The translations under genes and the position numbers were made by a program. From IMG/VR virus record IMGVR_UViG_3300017756_002223, positions 1 through 28,591 of that record: DNA of 28,591 nucleotides; one strand, given 5' to 3'. The notes under the pieces were generated by a model. It made no database searches, was not told the origin of the DNA, and saw only the letters and a list, made by a program, of their open reading frames with translations. Below, piece by piece: positions 7,548-25,105 of the stretch. The stretch comes from a virus. Position 1 is the stretch's first letter. Every line of letters begins with the position of its first letter.

Positions 7548-8591
7548 ATGTCTGAGTATAAGAAGACAGCACTTGTGCTTGGTGCTGGTGGATTTATTGG
7601 TTCTCATATGGTAAAACGCCTGCGTTCTGAGGGTTATTGGGTGCGTGGTGTTGATATCAAGCACACTGAATTTTCTAAAACAGAAGCAAACGAATTTATC
7701 TCTGCAGATCTACGTGATGCAGACATGGTTCGTCGTGCAATTCGGTTTACTGGTTATCTTGGTAACTTTTATAATCAGATTGCTGAAAAGTTTGTGCAAC
7801 CTTTTGATGAGATCTATCAGTTCGCTGCTGATATGGGTGGTGCAGGGTTTGTTTTCACTGGAGAAAATGATGCAGACATCTTGCACAACTCAGTGCAGAT
7901 TAACTTGAACGTGCTTGAGGAGCAAAGAAAACTTAATGAGTCCTCAAAGGGAAATAAAACTAAGATTTTCTATTCTGGGTCTGCTTGCATGTACCCGGAG
8001 CACAATCAACTAGACCCTGACAACCCTGACTGCCGTGAAGAATCAGCATACCCCGCCAACCCAGACTCAGAATACGGATGGGAAAAACTCTTCTCCGAGC
8101 GTCTCTTCTTGGCTTACAACCGCAATTATGGCATTCCTGTTCGGATTGCTCGTTATCACAACATCTTCGGACCCGAAGGAACCTATGAGGGAGGAAGAGA
8201 GAAAGCACCAGCTGCAATCTGCCGCAAGGTCGCTTTCCTCCCAGAGTCGGGTGGAGCTATCGAAGTGTGGGGAGATGGCTTACAAACTCGTTCCTTCCTG
8301 TTCGTTGATGAATGCATCGAAGCGACTAGACGACTGATGGATAGTGACTTCACTGGTCCTGTAAACATTGGTTCAGAAGAGATGGTAAGTATCAACGACC
8401 TGGTTGATATTGTTGCTGAGGTTGCTGGTAAAGAAGTTAAAAAGATTCATATTGATGGACCTTTGGGTGTCCGTGGTCGTAACTCTAACAATGACTTGAT
8501 TCGTGAGAAACTTAATTGGGATTACTCTCAATCACTTTCTGTAGGAATAGAAAAAACATACAGTTGGATTCATTCTCAACTTTTCAGTTGA
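7548..8591 (+). CDS. GDP-mannose 3,5-epimerase homologue
   Basis: Likely interconverts GDP-D-mannose with GDP-L-galactose or GDP-L-gulose, known best from plant ascorbate synthesis. 347 residues. SDR motif GAGGFIG (12-18); ADMGGAGF (94-101); FYSGSACMYPE (141-151) with C147; EYGWEKL (Y176, K180); YEGGREKAPAA (213-223) with K219; WGDGLQTRSF (241-250); VNIGSEEMVS; GVRGRNSNNDLI (308-318). C147, Y176, K180 and K219 correspond, with a constant +2 offset, to the catalytic C145, Y174, K178 and K217 of the Arabidopsis enzyme. The GGREKAPAA and ADMGG motifs separate it from GDP-fucose synthase. It has its own promoter. Bases 7981-8280 are much richer in G+C than the rest of the gene. Confidence 0.88.
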   Translation: MSEYKKTALVLGAGGFIGSHMVKRLRSEGYWVRGVDIKHTEFSKTEANEFISADLRDADMVRRAIRFTGYLGNFYNQIAEKFVQPFDEIYQFAADMGGAGFVFTGENDADILHNSVQINLNVLEEQRKLNESSKGNKTKIFYSGSACMYPEHNQLDPDNPDCREESAYPANPDSEYGWEKLFSERLFLAYNRNYGIPVRIARYHNIFGPEGTYEGGREKAPAAICRKVAFLPESGGAIEVWGDGLQTRSFLFVDECIEATRRLMDSDFTGPVNIGSEEMVSINDLVDIVAEVAGKEVKKIHIDGPLGVRGRNSNNDLIREKLNWDYSQSLSVGIEKTYSWIHSQLFS

Positions 8592-12034: not shown

Positions 12035-12771
12035 AAATTGCACTTTGTTTATCCGGGCAACCTAGAGTTGTTGAGGTTGGATTTCAAAAACTAAATGAAA
12101 CTATCTTACAGCACAATGATGTTGACGTGTTCATTCACACCTGGTTTGACCCAGAGAATCTGAGCACTCAGTCTGTCATTCCTGGTAGAGAGGGACATCA
12201 ACTATCACCAAATGCTTTGTATGTTCTACAGGAGTTATACAAACCCAAGATGATGATGGTTGAGAAACCGAAGACTTGGGGTAGAACATTTGAGTATCCT
12301 CAGAAAACTTTTGAGAAAGCGCACACCTGGGCACTTGAGGTGCCAACTGGACTTGATGATGCAAAGGGATATCTAAACAACACCACTCATTGCATGTGGT
12401 ATAGTTTGATGATGTCAAACATTCTCAAAGAGAGGTATTCCTCTGATGTTGGTGTTCAATATGATTGGGTTATCCGTAATCGTATTGATTATGGTCCTCA
12501 TCTTCACCTAACATTTGAAGAAGAACCCGAGGAAGACACTGTATATTACCAACACAACCCAGACCACCCTGATGGTATGTTGGGAGATTGGTTCGCCATG
12601 GGTTCTAACAGCTCTATGAACGTGTATTCTAGTGTGTTCTCAAGTCTGTATCCTCTTGTCAAACAATCTAATGAGGATGTAGGATACTGGTGTAATGAGT
12701 TGCTTTTGAAGTATCACTTGATGAACAATCACATCAAACCAGAACCAATTGATTTACAAGTTCATCACTGA
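12031..12771 (+). CDS. Putative glycosyltransferase-like protein
   Basis: 246 residues. It starts MKIALCLSGQPRVVEVG with VDVFIHTWF at 31-39, and later YDWVIRNRIDYGP (144-156) and LGDWFAMGSN. This CxSGQPR / DVFIHTW / RxRxD pattern is found in uncharacterised proteins of viral and bacterial polysaccharide clusters that are thought to be GT-A-type transferases. No canonical DxD is seen; NRID could play that role. No signal peptide or membrane span. It lies among sugar-nucleotide genes and not with the main transferase block after 16927. Family-level function is inferred. Confidence 0.6.
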   Translation: MKIALCLSGQPRVVEVGFQKLNETILQHNDVDVFIHTWFDPENLSTQSVIPGREGHQLSPNALYVLQELYKPKMMMVEKPKTWGRTFEYPQKTFEKAHTWALEVPTGLDDAKGYLNNTTHCMWYSLMMSNILKERYSSDVGVQYDWVIRNRIDYGPHLHLTFEEEPEEDTVYYQHNPDHPDGMLGDWFAMGSNSSMNVYSSVFSSLYPLVKQSNEDVGYWCNELLLKYHLMNNHIKPEPIDLQVHH

Positions 12772-13778
12772 TGAAGACAGTATTTGCTAAAGCACCTTTG
12801 AGATTAGCAATGTCTGGTGGAGGCACAGACTTGCAACCATACTGGAGCAAGTATGGTGGTGTAGTTTTGAATGGAACTATAGATCAATATGCATACTGTA
12901 AGATAGAACCCCATGATGAATGGGTTTTCAAAAGTGTTGACCTTGGATTAGAGGATAGTATTTCTCTTAAAGATTACCATGATGGTCCTCTAAAACTTTT
13001 AATCAATACTTATCAATACTTGACTAAGAGTTTGCGTAGGTCTCCTGTTAAGATTACGACCTATGTCGAGGCACCCCCTGGAAGTGGTTTGGGAAGTTCT
13101 AGTGCCCTTGTAGTTGCGCTGGTATCTGCTATCACTGAATATTATGGTCTTGCAAAGGGAGAGTATGATATTGCTGAAGATGCCATTATGATTGAGAGGG
13201 AGATATGTAGTCTCCCCGGCGGAAAACAAGACCAGTTTGCTGCTGCGTTTGGTGGATTTAACTTTATGGAGTTCTTGCCTGATGGTAGAACCATTGTTAA
13301 TCCACTGAGATTGAATTATAAAACCCAAAACATGGTGGAATTAAATACGGTTCTCTACTATGTTGGCAAACCACGTAAAGATGCAAACGTTATTGTAAAT
13401 ACCTCAAAGAATCTGGTGGATAATAGTAAAGTCATCCAGGCAACTCATAAAATTAAAGAAACTTGCATTGAATATAAGAATGCATTACTCACCGGAGACT
13501 TTGATATGATATCTCAGTTGATGAATACTTATTGGAAGATGAAGTTAGAGACCAATGAAAACGTTGCCTCTGATGAACTAATCGATGTTTATAATTTTGC
13601 TTTGCAAAATGGTGCTACTGGTGCTAAGATATCAGGTGCTGGAGGTGGCGGACATATGATTCTCTTTACTGACTTTGAAAAGAGACATCAACTGATCACT
13701 GCCCTTAAGAAAAGAAAACTTGGAAGAGTTGTTCCTTTTAAGTTTGTTAAACATGGTGTTGATGTTTGGAGATCTTAA
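12771..13778 (+). CDS. HddA-like GHMP sugar kinase
   Basis: 335 residues, the normal length for D-glycero-alpha-D-manno-heptose 7-phosphate kinase (HddA) and related GHMP kinases. Motif 1 KAPLRLAMSGGGTDL (7-21) is characteristic of this subgroup; motif 2 APPGSGLGSSSA (101-112) is the phosphate loop; motif 3 GAKISGAGGGGHMILF is near the C-terminus. HddA phosphorylates C1 of heptose 7-phosphate; fucokinase-like relatives share these motifs. A small HAD phosphatase, a cupin and an HddC-like guanylyltransferase follow directly, which supports a GDP-heptose-type pathway. GmhA, the first step, is not in the window. Confidence 0.85.
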   Translation: MKTVFAKAPLRLAMSGGGTDLQPYWSKYGGVVLNGTIDQYAYCKIEPHDEWVFKSVDLGLEDSISLKDYHDGPLKLLINTYQYLTKSLRRSPVKITTYVEAPPGSGLGSSSALVVALVSAITEYYGLAKGEYDIAEDAIMIEREICSLPGGKQDQFAAAFGGFNFMEFLPDGRTIVNPLRLNYKTQNMVELNTVLYYVGKPRKDANVIVNTSKNLVDNSKVIQATHKIKETCIEYKNALLTGDFDMISQLMNTYWKMKLETNENVASDELIDVYNFALQNGATGAKISGAGGGGHMILFTDFEKRHQLITALKKRKLGRVVPFKFVKHGVDVWRS

Positions 13779-15054: not shown

Positions 15055-15863
15055 AAATTATTGGGGCAACCGGAAACGTTGGTAAAAGACTTTTGGAGAA
15101 GTCTTTAAGTGTTTGGCACGATGATGTTGAGGCAATTGCAACACGGTTAGATAAGGATGAACTTGATTATAATTTCAAGTCTCTTTCACACAATGATACG
15201 ATTGCATTTTGTGCTGCTATCTCAGAACCAACAGTATGTGCTAACAACCCTGAGTTAGCACGAAAGGTAAACGTAGAAAAGACGATTGAATTTATTGAGA
15301 GATCAATTCAATACGGGGCAAAGGTTATCTTTATGTCAAGTGATGCTGTCTATGGTGACATAGATAAACCATTTGATGAACAGTGGGCGACGAATCCTAT
15401 TGGCGCATACGGTATGATGAAAGCAGAGGTAGAAAGATATTTTATCGGGCATCACAATGTAAAGATACTGAGATCCTCATACAACTTTTTTAGAGAAGAT
15501 CGATTTACTTCTTACCTAGAGAAGTGTGCATTATCTGGGGAGACAGCAGAGGTATTCTCTCCATTCAAGCGGTCAGTCATTCACCTGGATGATACCGTGG
15601 ATGCTATTCTTAGTCTCTCTAGGAACTGGGAGGGACCACAGATTATCAATTGCGGTGGACCTGAAACCCTTTGTAGAGCAGAGTTTGCTAAGATTCTAAA
15701 GGAAGAAGTTTTCCCTGAACTTGAAATAAAAATTGTAAGACCACCAGAAAAATTTTATATGGATAGACCTTGTGAGGTTTCGATGATGTCTATTTCACTC
15801 AAAGAAGTTTTAGGGAAACTCCAAAAGACTTTGAGAGAAGCAATTCGCATGGAGTTTGAATGA
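15048..15863 (+). CDS. RmlD-like SDR (NDP-4-keto-sugar reductase candidate)
   Basis: 271 residues from ATG 15048, overlapping the previous stop by 7 bases. NAD(P) motif GATGNVG (6-12) at the very N-terminus, SSDAVYGD (97-104) and YGMMK (Y121, K125) make a complete SDR active site; SVIHLDDTVDAIL follows. The short LKIIGATG start, the length and the SDAVYG...PxxAYGxxK layout resemble dTDP-4-dehydrorhamnose reductase (RmlD). It may reduce the RmlB/RmlC product or the Gmd product encoded next door. It ends in an ATGA overlap with Gmd. Confidence 0.75.
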   Translation: MLKIIGATGNVGKRLLEKSLSVWHDDVEAIATRLDKDELDYNFKSLSHNDTIAFCAAISEPTVCANNPELARKVNVEKTIEFIERSIQYGAKVIFMSSDAVYGDIDKPFDEQWATNPIGAYGMMKAEVERYFIGHHNVKILRSSYNFFREDRFTSYLEKCALSGETAEVFSPFKRSVIHLDDTVDAILSLSRNWEGPQIINCGGPETLCRAEFAKILKEEVFPELEIKIVRPPEKFYMDRPCEVSMMSISLKEVLGKLQKTLREAIRMEFE

Positions 15864-16882
15864 AAACAATTCTCATAACTGGCATCACAGGACAGGTAGG
15901 ATCTCAATTAGCAGACTACATCCTTGATAATACTAATTATAATGTGGTTGGTATGATGCGATGGCAAGAACCACTTGATAACATCTACCACCTTACTGAT
16001 CGTATCAATAAAAAAGATCGCATCTCTCTTTTCTATGCAGACCTGAATGATGGTATGTCTGTAAAGAGGATGATTGATGAGGTCAGACCTGATTATATCT
16101 CTCACCTTGCCGCACAGTCATACCCAAAGACATCATTTGATATTCCCATCGAAACTCTGCAGACAAACATCATTGGCACTGCAAATCTACTTGAAGCTGT
16201 CCGTCAGACGCCCAAGTATTACCCTGTAGTACACATCTGTTCATCTAGTGAGGTATATGGTAAAACGCCTACTGGAGTAGTCCTTAATGAGGATACGCCA
16301 ATGCACGGAGCAAGTCCTTATAGTATCAGTAAGATAGGTGCAGATCACTTAGGAAAGTTCTATGGTGAGGCATATGGAATGAAAACATTTATGACTCGCA
16401 TGGGAACACACACTGGACCCAGAAGGAGTGATGTTTTCTTTGAGAGCACGGTAGCAAAACAGATTGCGTTGATTGAAGCAGGATACCAAGAACCTGTTGT
16501 ATATGTTGGCAACCTGTCTAGCACTAGAACATTCCAAGATGCTAGAGATGCAGTAAGAGCATACTTCATGTTACTAGAGGCAAGTGCCAAAGGTAGGATT
16601 GAACCAGGAGAGCACTTTAATATTGCCGGTGATGAGGCATATAATTTAACAGAGGTAGTTGATTTATTACTGAGTTTTAGTACACGACTAGATATAGAGG
16701 TCAAAACTGATGTGAATCGATTGAGACCCATTGATGCAGACTACCAGATGTTTGATAACGCAAAAATCAAAAGCGTCATCGATTGGAAACCTGAGATTCC
16801 TACCGGACAAATGTTCCATGATCTTTTAGATCATTGGAGACATCAGATTTTTAAGATGGGTAAAATCCCATTGAATCGTTGA
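15860..16882 (+). CDS. gmd: GDP-mannose 4,6-dehydratase
   Basis: Makes GDP-4-dehydro-6-deoxy-D-mannose, the precursor of GDP-L-fucose, GDP-D-rhamnose and GDP-perosamine. 340 residues, close to the family norm. GITGQVG (8-14); HLAAQSY (82-88); CSSSEVYG (127-134) with the Ser-Glu pair of the dehydratases; SPYSISK (Y154, K158); THTGPRR (183-189) and GNLSSTRTFQDARDAVRA, both typical of Gmd. The dimer-type NHTGPRR motif reads THTGPRR here. A GT11 fucosyltransferase downstream (22879) points to GDP-fucose, though no clear GDP-fucose synthase is seen. ManC is absent, so host GDP-mannose is presumably used. Confidence 0.9.
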   Translation: MKTILITGITGQVGSQLADYILDNTNYNVVGMMRWQEPLDNIYHLTDRINKKDRISLFYADLNDGMSVKRMIDEVRPDYISHLAAQSYPKTSFDIPIETLQTNIIGTANLLEAVRQTPKYYPVVHICSSSEVYGKTPTGVVLNEDTPMHGASPYSISKIGADHLGKFYGEAYGMKTFMTRMGTHTGPRRSDVFFESTVAKQIALIEAGYQEPVVYVGNLSSTRTFQDARDAVRAYFMLLEASAKGRIEPGEHFNIAGDEAYNLTEVVDLLLSFSTRLDIEVKTDVNRLRPIDADYQMFDNAKIKSVIDWKPEIPTGQMFHDLLDHWRHQIFKMGKIPLNR

Positions 16883-17880: not shown

Positions 17881-18683
17881 CAAACGAAGAATCAGCAAAG
17901 TATATTCAAACTTATTACATGAAAACTAACGTCTATTATCATATCTGGGCACCAGCAGATACTGATATGTGGAAACTGATGGTAGATGAGCAGATTAAAA
18001 GACTTTATCGCTCTGGGTTGCCTGAGGTTGCTACTGTAAAGTGTGCTATCAAAGGACCCCAGGCATCTAGGATTGCTGAGTTTGTTTCTCTTTATGATTG
18101 GATTAACATCATTGGTGTGCAGGATAGTGATGAAGAGTATGAAGGTTTCACACTGAAGCATCTCTATGAGGATTGTGTGAACGAACGTGCAACCAAGGTC
18201 ATGTATTTTCATACCAAGGGTATGAGTCACATATGTGGAACCAGAGATCATTACTCTGACCGTAAAGTGCGAGCAATAAATAGTTGGCGACACCTCATGG
18301 AATGGGGTTGTATTGATAAATGGAAAGAAAACCTTGATAAACTAGACGAACATCAAGTATCTGGGGTAAACTATTGTTTGGATCCCTGGCCACATATGAG
18401 TGGTAACTTCTGGTGGGCAAGAGCAGACTACATTGCAACCCTACAGCACCCAACCAAAGACGCATTTGTCAGAGAGAAAGAGGACTTCGGTCCTATTGAG
18501 CGGATGAATTTTGAAAAGTGGGTTGGTATGAAGAACCCATCCACGTTCAGTTTCTATAATCCACCGTTCAGTTACGATTTCAAAGGTATGAAACCTGATG
18601 TGCAACCCACACCACCTGGGGAACCACATTGGTTCTGGTTGTATCGTGACGACATTCATCCACATTACTTAAAGGAATCATGA
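17877..18683 (+). CDS. Putative glycosyltransferase (FHTKG / GNFWWA type)
   Basis: 268 residues. Recognisable blocks are VMYFHTKGMS (108-117), NSWRHLMEWG, and PHMSGNFWWARADYI (172-186). This combination is found in uncharacterised proteins of capsule and viral glycan clusters that are regarded as glycosyltransferases; the GNFWWA block ends with an Arg/Asp pair. The C-terminus is rich in Pro and Trp (PTPPGEPHWFWLYRDD). No DxD in the classical place. Overlaps both neighbours by ATGA. Reaction unknown. Confidence 0.6.
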   Translation: MTNEESAKYIQTYYMKTNVYYHIWAPADTDMWKLMVDEQIKRLYRSGLPEVATVKCAIKGPQASRIAEFVSLYDWINIIGVQDSDEEYEGFTLKHLYEDCVNERATKVMYFHTKGMSHICGTRDHYSDRKVRAINSWRHLMEWGCIDKWKENLDKLDEHQVSGVNYCLDPWPHMSGNFWWARADYIATLQHPTKDAFVREKEDFGPIERMNFEKWVGMKNPSTFSFYNPPFSYDFKGMKPDVQPTPPGEPHWFWLYRDDIHPHYLKES

Positions 18684-19408
18684 GCACAAAATTTGGATGT
18701 TTTCATACGGTATATGAGAACAAGAAAGCAACGGAGTTTATCCTGCAGGAGTTTAGAAAGTATCACCCTGATGCACCATACACAATCTGCTGTGATGGTG
18801 GTGTAGATTACTCCGATCTGTGTGAGAAGTATAATATAAACTATGTTCATTCCTACATGAGGATTGGTCGTAGAAACTGGGGACATGAGTCTGGTGTGTA
18901 TGGATTTACCAAAGACGAAACCCTGCATTGGATTCACATGTTCCGTGAGGCAGCACGATATGTAAAGTCATCTGGTGGCACTCACATGATTATGATGGAG
19001 GATGATGTCCTTACTCAAGGTAAAGTAAAGATTCCGCCTGAGTGGGAGTGTGCTGGATTTGAAGTTCCTGAGAATAAGATTCAACCAGCACTATTAGACT
19101 TTATCAAAACTAAGTATGGTGCTAATCCAAACGTGGATTGGTATGGTGCAGGCGGCGGTAGCATCTACAACATCAATACTTTCCTTGATAACTACCACAA
19201 GATCTATGACTTCCTGGATTTTGAGTTTGATTATATTCTCAAGTATATGGATCACAGATTTGGATGGTTAGATTTCTACATGCAGATTGTATATTTTGTC
19301 TGTGGTAAAGACTATTCTATCAACACTAACTTAACTGAAACCTGGAAGACACCTAACTTCCGTGAGACTGATTTCTCTCTTGTTCATGCATATAAGGAGC
19401 TTTATTGA
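18680..19408 (+). CDS. Putative GT-A-type glycosyltransferase
   Basis: 242 residues. Early strand FGCFHTVYENKKAT resembles the GT-A nucleotide-binding start, and HMIMMEDDVL (102-111) supplies an E-D-D acidic motif of the type that binds the donor metal. GAGGGSIYNINTF (about 156-168) would be the acceptor-side loop. Ends with a helical region and YxLxxAYKELY. Not a classic GT2 by motif order; the family is unassigned. It abuts the next gene (TGATG) and follows the preceding gene by ATGA. Confidence 0.6.
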   Translation: MSTKFGCFHTVYENKKATEFILQEFRKYHPDAPYTICCDGGVDYSDLCEKYNINYVHSYMRIGRRNWGHESGVYGFTKDETLHWIHMFREAARYVKSSGGTHMIMMEDDVLTQGKVKIPPEWECAGFEVPENKIQPALLDFIKTKYGANPNVDWYGAGGGSIYNINTFLDNYHKIYDFLDFEFDYILKYMDHRFGWLDFYMQIVYFVCGKDYSINTNLTETWKTPNFRETDFSLVHAYKELY

Positions 19409-20385
19409 TGAGACTTGCACTTGTTGGACCTGGCATTATGCCCATTCCCCCTGATGGATGGGGTGCTGTTGAAAGTTTGATTTGGGATTATGCCCTAGAA
19501 CTAGATGAACTAGGACATGAAGGGACGATTGTTAATACTCCCAACTATGATGAGATTATCAACTTTTTGAAAGAAGAGCAATATGACTTTGCTCACGTTC
19601 ACTATGATGTCTTTCATCCAATTATGGATAGGATTGCTTCTGAAACTGACATTCCTAAATTAGCATTCAGTAGTCACTATCCTTACATCGATCAACCACA
19701 TATGCATCGCCGTGATGGGTATGATCGTATCTTTGATTGGATTATCAATAATAAAAAATACTATGTATTCTGCATCTCAAAGAAAGACTATGAGACTTTT
19801 AAGAATGCTGGAGCAGATGAGAGTACACTTCTCCTCTCTGAGAATGGTGCCAACCACAAGAGATTTACCTATAGTAGTGAAGCACTAAAACCTGACCGCT
19901 CCCTGTATCTGGGACAGATCTATCACCGTAAGAAGCAGTGGTTGTATCAAGGTATTGAGTCTATCGACTACGTAGGCAAGGACACTGGTGCTACACCATT
20001 CGATCAGTCTAAGAACTACCTTGGTGAATGGAGTGATGACTATAAGCGTGAGCACTTCACTGACTTTGCAAGTCTTGTTCTGCTGTCTGACGGAGAGAAC
20101 GGCACACCTCTGGTTGTAAAAGAGGCAATCATCAATGGACTTGGTGTAGTCATCTCTAAGTATGCTGCACACGATTTGCCTGAGGGTCTGCCTTTTGTTA
20201 CTGTGATCCCTGATGACAAACTTGAGGACATTCCATATGTCGAGGAGAAGATTAAGGAGAACCGTGAGATCTCTATCGGCATGAGAGATGAGATCAGACA
20301 ATTTGGTATTGATAACTTCTCTTGGGAGAGTCTTGTTAAACTCTATACTCAGAATGTTGAGAAGTTAGAACCCAATGCGAATTAG
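19408..20385 (+). CDS. GT4-like glycosyltransferase (GT-B fold)
   Basis: 325 residues from ATG 19408 overlapping the previous TGA. Starts MRLALVGPGIMPIPPDGWGA (G-rich loop and WGAVES, which hold the acceptor). C-terminal half: LYLGQIYHRKKQ, FDQSKNYLGEW, LVLLSDGENGTPLVVKEAIINGLGVVIS, the EX7E-like donor motif of GT4 with K-E-A for E-A. It is a clear paralogue of the N-terminal 310 residues of the next gene, sharing GWGAVESLIWDY, FDQSKNYLGEW and VTVIPxDK; a tandem duplication is the obvious explanation. Retaining mechanism expected from the fold. Confidence 0.82.
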   Translation: MRLALVGPGIMPIPPDGWGAVESLIWDYALELDELGHEGTIVNTPNYDEIINFLKEEQYDFAHVHYDVFHPIMDRIASETDIPKLAFSSHYPYIDQPHMHRRDGYDRIFDWIINNKKYYVFCISKKDYETFKNAGADESTLLLSENGANHKRFTYSSEALKPDRSLYLGQIYHRKKQWLYQGIESIDYVGKDTGATPFDQSKNYLGEWSDDYKREHFTDFASLVLLSDGENGTPLVVKEAIINGLGVVISKYAAHDLPEGLPFVTVIPDDKLEDIPYVEEKIKENREISIGMRDEIRQFGIDNFSWESLVKLYTQNVEKLEPNAN

Positions 20386-22042
20386 TATTATTGGACCAGA
20401 CACCCCAATCCCACCAAAGGGATGGGGTGCTGTTGAGTCTTTAATCTGGGACTACAAGATAATATTAGAGAAGTTAGGACACGAGGTTCAGATCATAAAC
20501 ATCGGAGACCCGATGAAGATTCTGGGCATGATTGACGAGTTCAAACCCGACTTCGTACATATCAACTATGATGACTGGGTTCCTCTATATCCTTACATTA
20601 GATATCCCTGTGCCATAACAACTCACTTTGCTTATATTGAAAGACCTGAACTGATGGGTCCATATAAGCAAAGGGTTTTTGATGTTTTCAGACAAATTAA
20701 ACCAACAGTCTTTGGACTGTCTGATGATATCAATAAAGTTTATGAAACTGATTGTGGGATTCCTTCTGATAGGTTATACTTGAATCCTAATGGAGTTATG
20801 TCAGACAACTTTAGAGTGACTGATACTCCTAAGTTTGCTGACAGATCTATCTTCCTCGCAAAGGTGGATTATAGAAAGAGGCAGTGCTTCTTTCAGTCTA
20901 TTGATAGTCTGTGGTATGCGGGTAATATCGTAGACCATAGATTCGATCAGTCTAAGAATTATCTTGGTGAGTGGGAGAAAGATTATCTCTATGATAATCT
21001 CACTGACTATGGAAACCTTGTGCTTCTATCTGATGGTGAGGCACATTCGCTGGTCATCATGGAAGCATTTGCTGCTGGTCTTGGTGTTGTTGTTAGTCAG
21101 TGGGCAACAGCAAACCTTGACTTGAGTAAGAAGTTCATCACTGTAATCCCTGAAGATAAAGTTGATGACCTTGAGTATGTTGAGAGAGCAATCACTGAGA
21201 ACAGAGAATACTCTGTGAATAATAGAGATGAAATCCTAGAATACTCTAAGCAGTTTGACTGGACTAATGTAATTCAAAATTATTTCATACCAAATATTGA
21301 GAAGATGATTGAGAATAAAAAGAATAAGGTTGCTATCTGCTTCATAGGAACAGGGAAGTATTTGAACTATCTTCCTAATTACTATGAGCACATTGAAGAG
21401 CACTTTCTACCAGAGTCTGAAAAGACATTCTTAGTCTTCACAGACGGAGAACTGGAGGAAATGCCTGACAATGTGATTCGTTATCATCAGGATCATTTAG
21501 ACTGGCCATTCATCACTCTTAAACGATTTGAGATTCTCAATCAAGCAAGACAAGAGATTATGAAGAACGATTGGTTTGTTTTCATTGATGCTGATGCTCT
21601 GGTGACTAGTGACATTACTGAAGAAGAATTCTTTGACCCTAGCAAACCATTCTTTGGGGTGCATCACCCGTGTCACTTCCTTGGTATGCAACCACATGGT
21701 AAGTTTCCTGGTGCTTTTGAGACGAACCCTAAGTGTCGTGCATCTATTACAGAGGATGCTGATGTCTCAACCTACTGGCAAGGATGTCTGTGGGGTGGTA
21801 AAGTGCCCTATGTGTTTGAACTGATTGATGAACTTCAGAATAGAACCAATGATGATCTAAAAGATGATATAATAGCAGTGTGGCACGATGAAAGTCATCT
21901 AAATAAATTTTTTATAGAGAATAAAGAGAGAGTACATACCTTACCTTCGTCATATGCATACCCAGAAGACTTTGCTGACGCATGTGATTTTGAAGCGAAG
22001 ATAGTACATCTATCAAAAAATAATTCTAATTATCATATCTAA
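20375..22042 (+). CDS. Two-domain glycosyltransferase: GT4-like plus GT6-like
   Basis: 555 residues, roughly two domains. Residues 1-312 are GT4-like: MRISIIGPDTPIPPKGWGAV, FDQSKNYLGEW (190-200) and LVIMEAFAAGLGVVVS (226-241). Residues 318-555 start afresh with KVAICFIGTGKYL and carry the GT6 (ABO/alpha-1,3-galactosyltransferase) features: FIDADALV (403-410, DxD = D405/D407), HHPCHF (430-435), YWQGCLWGG (467-475), and the hallmark AVWHDESHLN (501-510), then KIVHLSKNN. GT6 transfers Gal or GalNAc with retention, usually to a fucosylated Gal. The start overlaps the previous gene by 11 bases. A GT11 fucosyltransferase follows two genes later. Confidence 0.88.
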   Translation: MRISIIGPDTPIPPKGWGAVESLIWDYKIILEKLGHEVQIINIGDPMKILGMIDEFKPDFVHINYDDWVPLYPYIRYPCAITTHFAYIERPELMGPYKQRVFDVFRQIKPTVFGLSDDINKVYETDCGIPSDRLYLNPNGVMSDNFRVTDTPKFADRSIFLAKVDYRKRQCFFQSIDSLWYAGNIVDHRFDQSKNYLGEWEKDYLYDNLTDYGNLVLLSDGEAHSLVIMEAFAAGLGVVVSQWATANLDLSKKFITVIPEDKVDDLEYVERAITENREYSVNNRDEILEYSKQFDWTNVIQNYFIPNIEKMIENKKNKVAICFIGTGKYLNYLPNYYEHIEEHFLPESEKTFLVFTDGELEEMPDNVIRYHQDHLDWPFITLKRFEILNQARQEIMKNDWFVFIDADALVTSDITEEEFFDPSKPFFGVHHPCHFLGMQPHGKFPGAFETNPKCRASITEDADVSTYWQGCLWGGKVPYVFELIDELQNRTNDDLKDDIIAVWHDESHLNKFFIENKERVHTLPSSYAYPEDFADACDFEAKIVHLSKNNSNYHI

Positions 22043-22043
22043 A

Positions 22044-22892
22044 ATGAAAGTCACAGTATTGGGATCTTCGGGTCAAATTGGTGCATACCTAACAGAATAT
22101 CTCCGTGGTAAAGGTCACGAGGTAATAGAGTTTGATGTTGCTAGACACCACGGTGAAGACCTCACACAAATTCCTAATCACAACTTAGATCGTGCTATTA
22201 AGAATGCAGACTTTGTGTTCTTCCTGGCATTTGATGTTGGTGGGTCTAGGTATCTGAAGAAGTATCAGCATACATTTAAATTCATTGATAACAACACCCG
22301 TATGATGGCGCAGACCTTTGGTTTGCTTGAGAAATATCATAAGCGTTTTGTCTTTGCATCGTCTCAAATGAGTAACATGAGTTACTCTCCATATGGTGTG
22401 ATGAAGCGTGTTGGTGAAATGTATACCACTACACTTAAGGGTCTCACTGTTAAGTTTTGGAATGTGTATGGTATTGAAAAAGACCTGGAAAAGGCACACG
22501 TCATTACTGACTTCATCCGCAAAGGGTTTGAAGAAGGTGACTTTGAGATGATGACTGATGGCACTGAGGAACGTCAGTTCCTCTATGCTGAAGACTGCTG
22601 TGAGGCACTGGAAACAGTGATGGAAAACTTCACTGACTTTAAACCAGAAGACCCTCTACACATCACTTCATTTCATTCAACCACCATTAAAGATGTTGCA
22701 TCAATTATCATGGGGCAATTCCGCTTGATTGATAAAGAAGTTAACATCAAACCTGGACTTGCAAAAGATAGTGTTCAATTAGATAAGAGAAACGAAGCAG
22801 ATAGTTACATAACTGGATGGTGGTTACCCAAAACCAACATGCAGAATGGAATTGCAAAAGTGTTTGAGGCTATGAAGAATGATTGGGTTTAA
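22044..22892 (+). CDS. SDR NDP-sugar epimerase/dehydratase
   Basis: 282 residues. N-terminal VLGSSGQIGAYL (5-16) is the NAD(P) loop; FVFASSQMSN (103-111) and YSPYGVMKRVGE (114-125; Y117, K121) form the active site; FWNVYGIE and ERQFLYAEDCCEAL are typical of extended SDRs. It is the sixth SDR in the cluster and the only non-transferase in this operon, so it probably supplies a donor to an adjacent transferase, for example by 4-epimerisation. Specificity cannot be read. There is one spacer base after the GT6 stop, and it overlaps the next gene by 14 bases. Confidence 0.78.
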   Translation: MKVTVLGSSGQIGAYLTEYLRGKGHEVIEFDVARHHGEDLTQIPNHNLDRAIKNADFVFFLAFDVGGSRYLKKYQHTFKFIDNNTRMMAQTFGLLEKYHKRFVFASSQMSNMSYSPYGVMKRVGEMYTTTLKGLTVKFWNVYGIEKDLEKAHVITDFIRKGFEEGDFEMMTDGTEERQFLYAEDCCEALETVMENFTDFKPEDPLHITSFHSTTIKDVASIIMGQFRLIDKEVNIKPGLAKDSVQLDKRNEADSYITGWWLPKTNMQNGIAKVFEAMKNDWV

Positions 22893-23730
22893 TCACATTG
22901 GAGCCATTGGAAGATTTGGTAACCAGATGTTCCAGTATGCAGCACTGAAAGGTATTGCCGCTAATCGTGGTTTTGATTACACAATCCCACCAGAGAATTC
23001 CCAAATTCAAATTGATAACTATGGATTGCTAGAAGCATTTGAGTTGTCTACCAATAAGAATGTTGGTTGGAAAGAAAGCAGTGACACGGTGCAGGAGAGG
23101 CACTTTCATTTTGATGAGGAAATCTTTAATAAATGCCCTGACGATGTAAACATCCATGGATTCTTTCAAACAGAAAAGTATTTCAAGCATATTGAAGATG
23201 ATATCCGTAAGGACTTTACTTTCAAAAGTGAGTGGTTAGAACCTTGCCAAAATATGATTGAACAATTAGACACTGATCCAATCCTCCTTCATGTTCGTCG
23301 TGGTGACCCTGGACTTGCTGACAAAAGAGGGTTTAAGTGGGCATATGTGAACCTTGCTCATCAGCATCCTGTACAACCCCTAGAATATTACAAGAAGGCA
23401 CTTGCAGAGTTTGATGACGAACAACCTGTGATTGTGTTCTCTGACTCAATTGACTGGGTGAAAGAGCAACCATTCTTCCAAGGTGATAGATTTATGTTTT
23501 CTGAACCAGAGGACAAGCACTCTGACGGAGCACTAGTTCCTTACCTTGATATGTGCTTGATGTCTCTCTGTAGTCATGCTATCATTGCTAATAGTTCTAT
23601 GTCATGGTGGGGTGCCTGGTTGATTAAAAATCCAAACAAAAAAGTCATAGCACCAAGCATGTGGTTTGGTTCTGACTATGCTGATAAAGATACCTCTGAT
23701 TTATATTGCGAAGGATGGAAAGTAATTTAA
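22879..23730 (+). CDS. GT11 alpha-1,2-fucosyltransferase
   Basis: 283 residues, the normal family length. GRFGNQMFQYAALKGIA (11-27) is the GT11 N-terminal motif; NIHGFFQTEKYF (91-102) matches the G-x-x-Q-x-x-K-Y-F block; LLHVRRGD (136-143) is the GDP-fucose-binding HxRRGD; VFSDSIDWVK and ANSSMSWWGAWL are motifs II and III. It transfers L-fucose from GDP-fucose in alpha-1,2 linkage, commonly to galactose, which is the acceptor type GT6 enzymes then extend. Gmd at 15860 supplies part of the donor route. The start lies inside the previous gene. Confidence 0.92.
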   Translation: MIGFNHIGAIGRFGNQMFQYAALKGIAANRGFDYTIPPENSQIQIDNYGLLEAFELSTNKNVGWKESSDTVQERHFHFDEEIFNKCPDDVNIHGFFQTEKYFKHIEDDIRKDFTFKSEWLEPCQNMIEQLDTDPILLHVRRGDPGLADKRGFKWAYVNLAHQHPVQPLEYYKKALAEFDDEQPVIVFSDSIDWVKEQPFFQGDRFMFSEPEDKHSDGALVPYLDMCLMSLCSHAIIANSSMSWWGAWLIKNPNKKVIAPSMWFGSDYADKDTSDLYCEGWKVI

Positions 23731-24651: not shown

Positions 24652-24674
24652 AGATATACTTAAAGGTAACAAAA

Positions 24675-25046
24675 ATGTTTAAATCTGTATTCGCAGCCTC
24701 CGCTGCTCTATTCGCTTCTGCTGGCGCTGCCCTTGCAGGTCCCTACGTCAACGTCGAAACCAATGCAGGTTGGACCGGCGGCGATTACACCGGAGCTACT
24801 ACAGATCTCCACGTTGGATACGAAGGTCCCGTTGGTGAATCTGCTGCATACTACGTCCAACTAGGTGCTTCCGTTGTCTCCCCTGATGCCGGAGAATCTG
24901 ACACTGTTCCTTCTGGTAAGGCAGGTCTTTCCGTTGCTGCTACCGACGCAGTGGGTGTCTATGGTGAAATCTCCTTCATCGGTTCTGGTGATGATGACGT
25001 TGACCGTGGTTATGGTGGTAAACTGGGTGTGAAGTATAGCTTCTGA
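24675..25046 (+). CDS. Secreted beta-barrel-like (porin-like) protein
   Basis: 123 residues from ATG 24675 (AAAGGT about 8 bases upstream). The first 21 residues are a classic signal peptide (FKSVFAASAALFASAGAALA, cut before G22). The mature part is an alternating polar/hydrophobic pattern of short strands with Gly/Asp turns (VNVETNAGWTGGDYTGATTD, AYYVQLGASVV, GVYGEISFIGSGDDD) and ends in GVKYSF; a C-terminal Phe is the usual outer-membrane barrel signal. About eight strands would fit. Codon use is unusually C-ending and G+C-rich compared with neighbours. It is expressed from its own composite promoter. Outer membrane placement in the cyanobacterial host is inferred. Confidence 0.75.
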   Translation: MFKSVFAASAALFASAGAALAGPYVNVETNAGWTGGDYTGATTDLHVGYEGPVGESAAYYVQLGASVVSPDAGESDTVPSGKAGLSVAATDAVGVYGEISFIGSGDDDVDRGYGGKLGVKYSF

Positions 25047-25077: not shown

Positions 25078-25078
25078 G

Positions 25079-25105
25079 GGGGTGCTGACGAGCGCCCCTT
25101 TTTTT
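25079..25105 (+). terminator. Intrinsic terminator after the porin-like gene
   Basis: GGGGTGC (25079-25085) pairs with GCGCCCC (25092-25098), seven pairs with one T.G, loop TGACGA, followed by seven T (25099-25105). It lies 32 bases after the stop codon. Confidence 0.88.

What the first reader, a model, noticed from the sequence alone, without database searches (positions are those of the whole stretch)
20375..22042. GT4-GT6 fusion with an intact DxD
Seen: one ORF joins a GT4-like domain (1-312) to a domain with WHDESHLN, the ABO-type GT6 hallmark, and DAD at 405-407. Known: GT6 is mainly vertebrate with scattered bacterial members and a reported cyanophage copy; many bacterial GT6 enzymes have NxN in place of DxD. 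Inference: a bifunctional enzyme adding two sugars in sequence, possibly metal-dependent in its second half.
Basis: partly seen in the sequence, partly recalled or inferred. Interest (0 to 1): 0.8.

Follow-up and report, generated by a model that had tools for sequence, protein, structure and literature searches.

The report
Cyanophage two-enzyme sugar transferase fusion
A virus of marine cyanobacteria carries one protein made of two complete sugar-transferring enzymes, the second related to the enzymes that make human A/B blood-group sugars, and in relatives that second enzyme almost always sits near a fucosyltransferase-type gene, as expected if these viruses build blood-group-like sugars.

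Summary
ORF 20375-22042 (555 aa, no break) joins a GT-B-fold GT4-like enzyme (1-312) to a GT-A-fold GT6 enzyme (318-555) with DAD at 405-407 and WHDE at 503-506. It is no assembly error: the in-frame fusion recurs in nine other viral contigs (67-98% identity per half), both halves are under purifying selection, and both fold confidently onto GT4 and GT6 structures. A second, separately evolved GT4-GT6 fusion exists in six further contigs; relatives of those carry the two genes unfused, abutting in different frames. The same GT4 head is also fused to a carbamoyltransferase and to a GT25, so it is a recurrent fusion head.

The "intact DxD" is not special: all 92 distinct viral GT6 sequences compared have DAD. 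More informative is context: 50 of 52 GT6 loci carry a GT11 (alpha-1,2-fucosyltransferase family) gene, often overlapping GT6, the H-antigen-then-A/B logic known from E. coli O86. In several isolates a GDP-mannose 3,5-epimerase precedes GT11, so the branching sugar may be L-galactose. Most likely the fusion is a bifunctional surface-glycan enzyme whose two steps need not be consecutive. No activity, donor or acceptor was tested.

The parts
20375..21310 (+). GT4-like head, GT-B fold, residues 1-312; EX7E = E222/E230, R167/K168, H84
21311..21325 (+). Linker between the halves (residues 313-317); no stop, and no start codon conserved among the fused relatives near it
21326..22039 (+). GT6 domain, GT-A fold, residues 318-555; DAD 405-407, QGC 469-471 in the donor loop, WHDE 503-506, K548
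19405..20385 (+). Paralogous GT4 (GT4a, 43% identical to the head); overlaps the fusion start; found just upstream of the head in most relatives
22044..22892 (+). NAD-dependent sugar epimerase/reductase between fusion and GT11; same place in the window-type fused relatives examined
22879..23730 (+). GT11, alpha-1,2-fucosyltransferase family, with an HVRRGD motif
7548..8591 (+). GDP-mannose 3,5-epimerase-like (possible source of GDP-L-galactose for GT11)

Best explanation
A bifunctional, retaining glycosyltransferase of a Synechococcus-infecting T4-like phage (Kyanoviridae). The N-terminal GT4 enzyme adds one sugar to a surface glycan of the host (less likely of the virion). The C-terminal GT6 enzyme, probably metal-dependent, adds an alpha-linked galactose-type sugar to a galactose already carrying an alpha-1,2-linked L-fucose or L-galactose put there by the neighbouring GT11. 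The fusion arose by joining of adjacent glycosyltransferase genes and keeps two steps of one pathway in a fixed ratio and place. Shown: the fusion, the predicted folds, motif retention, selection, recurrence, GT11 linkage. Inferred: activity of each half, donors, acceptors, order of steps, target glycan, benefit of fusion.
For: Fusion in 10 window-type contigs and 6 of a second type. dN/dS 0.03-0.08 in both halves between the window protein and its fused relatives where dS can be estimated. Full-length model pLDDT 89.6, GT4 half 94.9. GT6 half matches BoGT6a with TM 0.90 by target length; GT4 half matches MshA with TM 0.78 by query length. W66, T70, H122, WHDE and K231 of BoGT6a are kept and the NXN position is DAD. 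GT11 in 50 of 52 GT6 loci; among GT4-query loci of at least 9 kb, GT11 in 43 of 43 with GT6 and 0 of 12 without. In E. coli O86 a GT11-type enzyme and the GT6 enzyme WbnI serve the same O unit (PMC4202792, PMC4506291).
Against: No enzyme activity of a viral GT6 was found in the papers read. The donor-loop triplet QGC differs from BoGT6a (AGG) and from the human A and B enzymes (LGG and MGA, from memory), so the donor cannot be read off. No GDP-fucose pathway above curated cut-offs in the window. The GT11 linkage counts contigs that are related to one another. P-SSM2, with a distant GT6, was not scanned for GT11.
Confidence: 0.55

Rival explanations
1. The fusion has no functional coupling: loss of the boundary between two abutting genes left two independent enzymes on one chain.
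For: Unfused relatives are common; in L145-L157 GT4 and GT6 genes abut in different frames. GT4 heads also join a carbamoyltransferase and a GT25, as expected if any neighbour can be joined.
Against: Recurrence at the same head and maintenance over long divergence (dS to saturation) suggest some benefit, though they do not prove it.
Confidence: 0.25
2. The two halves act consecutively, GT6 adding its sugar directly onto the sugar added by GT4.
For: Direct fusion; some GT6 enzymes (alpha-1,3-galactosyltransferase) use unfucosylated galactose (general knowledge).
Against: GT11 lies near GT6 in 50 of 52 loci and was absent from the GT4 loci that lack GT6.
Confidence: 0.15
3. One half is a non-catalytic anchoring or recognition domain.
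For: The N-lobe of the GT4 head differs sharply in L008/L010 while the rest does not, which could reflect target recognition.
Against: EX7E, RK and DxD/WHDE residues are conserved and both halves are under strong purifying selection.
Confidence: 0.05
4. An assembly or sequencing error joins two genes.
For: The record is metagenome-derived.
Against: Same in-frame junction in 9 other contigs, no stop.
Confidence: 0.01

Closest known systems
BoGT6a of Bacteroides ovatus (GT6, PDB 4ayj/4cj8)
   Same: Fold, length, WHDE and Lys231 positions; about 30% identity
   Different: NAN instead of DAD; AGG instead of QGC in the donor loop; not fused
Human ABO transferases GTA/GTB (GT6)
   Same: Fold and DxD; sequence match about 1e-14
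   Different: About 22% identity; donor-determining residues differ; not fused to a second transferase
Stand-alone cyanophage GT6 (S-CAM9, S-PRM1, Bellamy, B23, DSL-LC02/03, ACG-2014f)
   Same: 50-64% identity, DAD and QGC, GT11 beside or near it
   Different: Single-domain gene, no GT4 head
SynMITS9220M01 gene 208 (GT4 head + carbamoyltransferase)
   Same: GT4 head 88% identical, same fusion point
   Different: Partner is a carbamoyltransferase; this phage has GT6 as a separate gene next to GT11
E. coli O86 WbnH/WbnJ/WbnK/WbnI pathway
   Same: A GT-B enzyme, a GT11-type enzyme and a GT6 enzyme build one blood-group-B-like O unit (PMC4506291, PMC4202792)
   Different: Separate proteins in a bacterium; donors and acceptors known
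Dual-domain transferases such as KpsC and the exostosins
   Same: Two transferase modules on one chain
   Different: Different families and substrates; compared from abstracts only

Membership tests
GT6 (CAZy) | Significant match to a curated family model | tested here: met
   PF03414 71.5 bits, cut-off 25. NCBIfam NF041524 (171.8 bits) is below its cut-off of 250.
GT6 (CAZy) | GT-A fold of the GT6 kind | tested here: met
   Foldseek best hit 4ayj, E 4e-21, TM 0.90 by target length
GT6 (CAZy) | Catalytic WHDE and C-terminal Lys | tested here: met
   W503-E506 and K548 align with W189-E192 and K231
GT6 (CAZy) | Metal dependence expected of the DXD type | not testable with these tools
   DAD present; activity not measured
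GT6 (CAZy) | Alpha-1,3 transfer of Gal or GalNAc | not testable with these tools
   No assay possible
GT4 (CAZy) | Match to a curated family model | tested here: inconclusive
   Below cut-off for the window protein (PF13439 23.3 of 28.5 bits); the homologous head in L101 passes (33.1 bits)
GT4 (CAZy) | GT-B fold most like retaining GT4 enzymes | tested here: met
   MshA, BshA, PglA, WbnH, GlgM; E down to about 1e-14, TM up to 0.78
GT4 (CAZy) | EX7E motif and R/K pair | tested here: met
   E222, E230, R167, K168 invariant in 42 sequences
H/A/B antigen-type pathway | GT11 gene linked with GT6 | tested here: met
   50 of 52 GT6 loci
H/A/B antigen-type pathway | GDP-L-fucose synthesis genes in the window | tested here: not met
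   No gmd or fcl above curated cut-offs among the proteins scanned; nearest are a GDP-heptose 4,6-dehydratase and a GDP-mannose 3,5-epimerase. The window is a genome fragment.

The most novel reading that the evidence does not exclude
Many Kyanoviridae carry a compact histo-blood-group-like pathway, GT11 followed by a metal-dependent GT6, in which the branching sugar is often L-galactose (from a phage GDP-mannose 3,5-epimerase) in place of L-fucose; a subset has fused the GT6 step to a GT4 head that repeatedly picks up new partner enzymes. The product would remodel the surface of infected cyanobacteria, for instance to block other phages.
Probability: 0.25. Interest if true: 0.75.

Novelty: new variant of a known kind. 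Interest (0 to 1): 0.5.

Why it matters
GT6 enzymes are known mainly from vertebrate blood groups and from bacteria with a metal-free NXN variant. Here a large DXD-type viral branch, tied to GT11 genes and in part fused to GT4, gives ready candidates for testing whether marine phages make blood-group-like glycans and what these do to infected cells. The recurring GT4 head is also a natural example of how bifunctional glycosyltransferases are assembled.

Tried and rejected
Assembly error: rejected by nine same-type contigs. Special status of the DxD: rejected, DAD in all 92 distinct viral sequences. Single origin of all GT4-GT6 fusions: rejected on the GT6 tree, AU p 2.6e-55 (group named after seeing a tree). 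Separate expression of the GT6 half from an internal start: an ATG exists at residue 310 in the window, but L011 has no start codon there. A close cellular relative: none found by the genome scan, which reaches close relatives only. Curated GDP-fucose pathway in the window: not found. PDB sequence search with the GT4 profile: no convincing hit, replaced by a fold search. Literature: the terms used found no paper on a GT4-GT6 fusion. Promoter-like and terminator-like scans near the gene were uninformative.

Full report
Observation. The ORF 20375-22042 is continuous and codes for 555 residues. The window is a 28.6-kb virus record; the annotated record that covers most of its first 16 kb is Synechococcus phage SynMITS9220M01, Kyanoviridae (35% covered, 79% identity). 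The second half passes the Pfam GT6 cut-off and matches BoGT6a and human ABO enzymes by sequence. The first half is only a sub-threshold Pfam GT4 match but belongs to a phage glycosyltransferase family (PHROG 33732).

Structure. A 63-sequence alignment gave a full-length model of pLDDT 89.6. Against the PDB its best matches are BoGT6a entries (E 4e-21, TM 0.90 by target length), then ABO enzymes. The GT4 half alone (pLDDT 94.9) matches retaining GT-B enzymes: MshA (TM 0.78), BshA, PglA, GlgM, WbnH. Its EX7E motif (E222, E230) and the R167-K168 pair are invariant in 42 relatives.

Is the fusion real and shared? Nine further IMG/VR contigs have the same in-frame fusion, with 67-98% identity per half. 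A second type is found in six contigs with a GT6 half only about 41% identical. Several relatives of that second type have the two genes abutting in other frames, with the GT6 start within a few bases of the GT4 stop, so joining of adjacent genes is the likely origin. On the GT6 tree the window-type fusions form one clade, while the second type is mixed with unfused sequences; one common clade is rejected (p 2.6e-55; the group was named after a tree had been seen, so take the value as indicative). The GT4 head is also fused to a carbamoyltransferase in SynMITS9220M01 and to a GT25 in L063, and most copies are unfused. Identity to the window protein is uneven along the fused relatives: L008/L010 have 43-61% in the first 180 residues and 68-88% after that, and L011-L013 have 81-98% in GT4 and 66-78% in GT6. 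This points to recombination between modules.

Are both halves kept? dN/dS between the window protein and its fused relatives is 0.03-0.08 in each half where dS is not saturated; other pairs give 0.07-0.18, some of them on few changes. Of the BoGT6a residues mapped, W66, T70, H122, W189, H190, D191, E192 and K231 are kept (window W377, T381, H431, W503-E506, K548); Asn69 is Ile, Thr134 is Ala, and NAN is DAD (roles in BoGT6a from PMC3961637).

DxD. PMC3961637 describes NXN as the usual bacterial motif and reports that a bacterial GT6 with DXD is metal-dependent. All 92 distinct viral GT6 sequences compared have DAD; P-SSM2 has DVD and one gut phage has NAN. The donor loop reads QGC in the Synechococcus-phage branch and AGG in P-SSM2 and BoGT6a. 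This position helps to decide Gal versus GalNAc in ABO enzymes, so the donor is open; Gal is my guess, because Cys is larger than the Gly found in GalNAc users.

Context. GT11 is found in 50 of 52 GT6 loci, overlapping or abutting the GT6 start in 28. Among GT4-query loci of at least 9 kb, GT11 is present in 43 of 43 with GT6 and in 0 of 12 without (the contigs are related, so the p-value is not a true probability). In S-CAM9, S-PRM1, Bellamy, S-8S56 and SynMITS9220M01 the order is epimerase-GT11-GT6. The epimerase matches GDP-mannose 3,5-epimerase in the two that were compared with solved structures, and the others are 72-97% identical relatives. Several fucosyltransferases accept GDP-L-galactose (PMC8787198). 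In the window this epimerase lies at 7548-8591, and another sugar epimerase/reductase lies directly before GT11, as in the window-type fused relatives examined. Some other loci carry a GDP-fucose synthase relative instead.

Mechanism. In E. coli O86 an alpha-1,2-fucosyltransferase and the GT6 enzyme WbnI, whose acceptor is Fuc-alpha-2-Gal, serve one O unit. By analogy the GT6 half here should act after GT11, while the GT4 half may act earlier, so the two halves need not add neighbouring sugars. The glycan is most likely part of the host surface, as proposed for glycosyltransferases of marine phages (PMC7029224, PMC9602691); this is inference.

Verdict. Real, sound and recurrent; a new domain combination within known families. 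Function is unproven.

Noticed in passing
window 15860-16882: Very close homologue of GDP-D-glycero-D-manno-heptose 4,6-dehydratase (PDB 7us5, E 3.7e-164); with an HddA-like kinase at 12771-13778 (below its curated cut-off) it suggests a phage-borne GDP-6-deoxyheptose pathway.
   Followed up: partly
window 19405-20385: The GT4 paralogue just upstream has its acidic pair spaced by 8, not 7, residues (ENGTPLVVKE).
   Followed up: no
L004 5001-7520 (SynMITS9220M01): Same GT4 head fused to a carbamoyltransferase, annotated 'hypothetical protein'.
   Followed up: partly
L063 5001-6752: GT4 head fused to a GT25; in L152 a GT4 stop is followed at once by a similar reading frame in another phase.
   Followed up: partly
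L101, L141, L145 and relatives: Second-type GT6 lack the Trp of WHDE and the conserved C-terminal Lys, although they pass the Pfam GT6 cut-off; activity may differ.
   Followed up: no
L066-L118 group, e.g. L113 1784-2536: A GT6 branch with FYEESYMN or similar in place of WHDESHLN, also near GT11.
   Followed up: no
window 24672-25046: Cyanophage outer-membrane-type beta-barrel protein (PF24653, 1e-49) at the end of the sugar cluster, followed by a terminator-like hairpin at 25078-25099.
   Followed up: no
window 18680-19408: Weak, sub-threshold match to SseK/NleB glycosyltransferases (PF24688, E 0.0018); probably just another transferase of the cluster.
   Followed up: no
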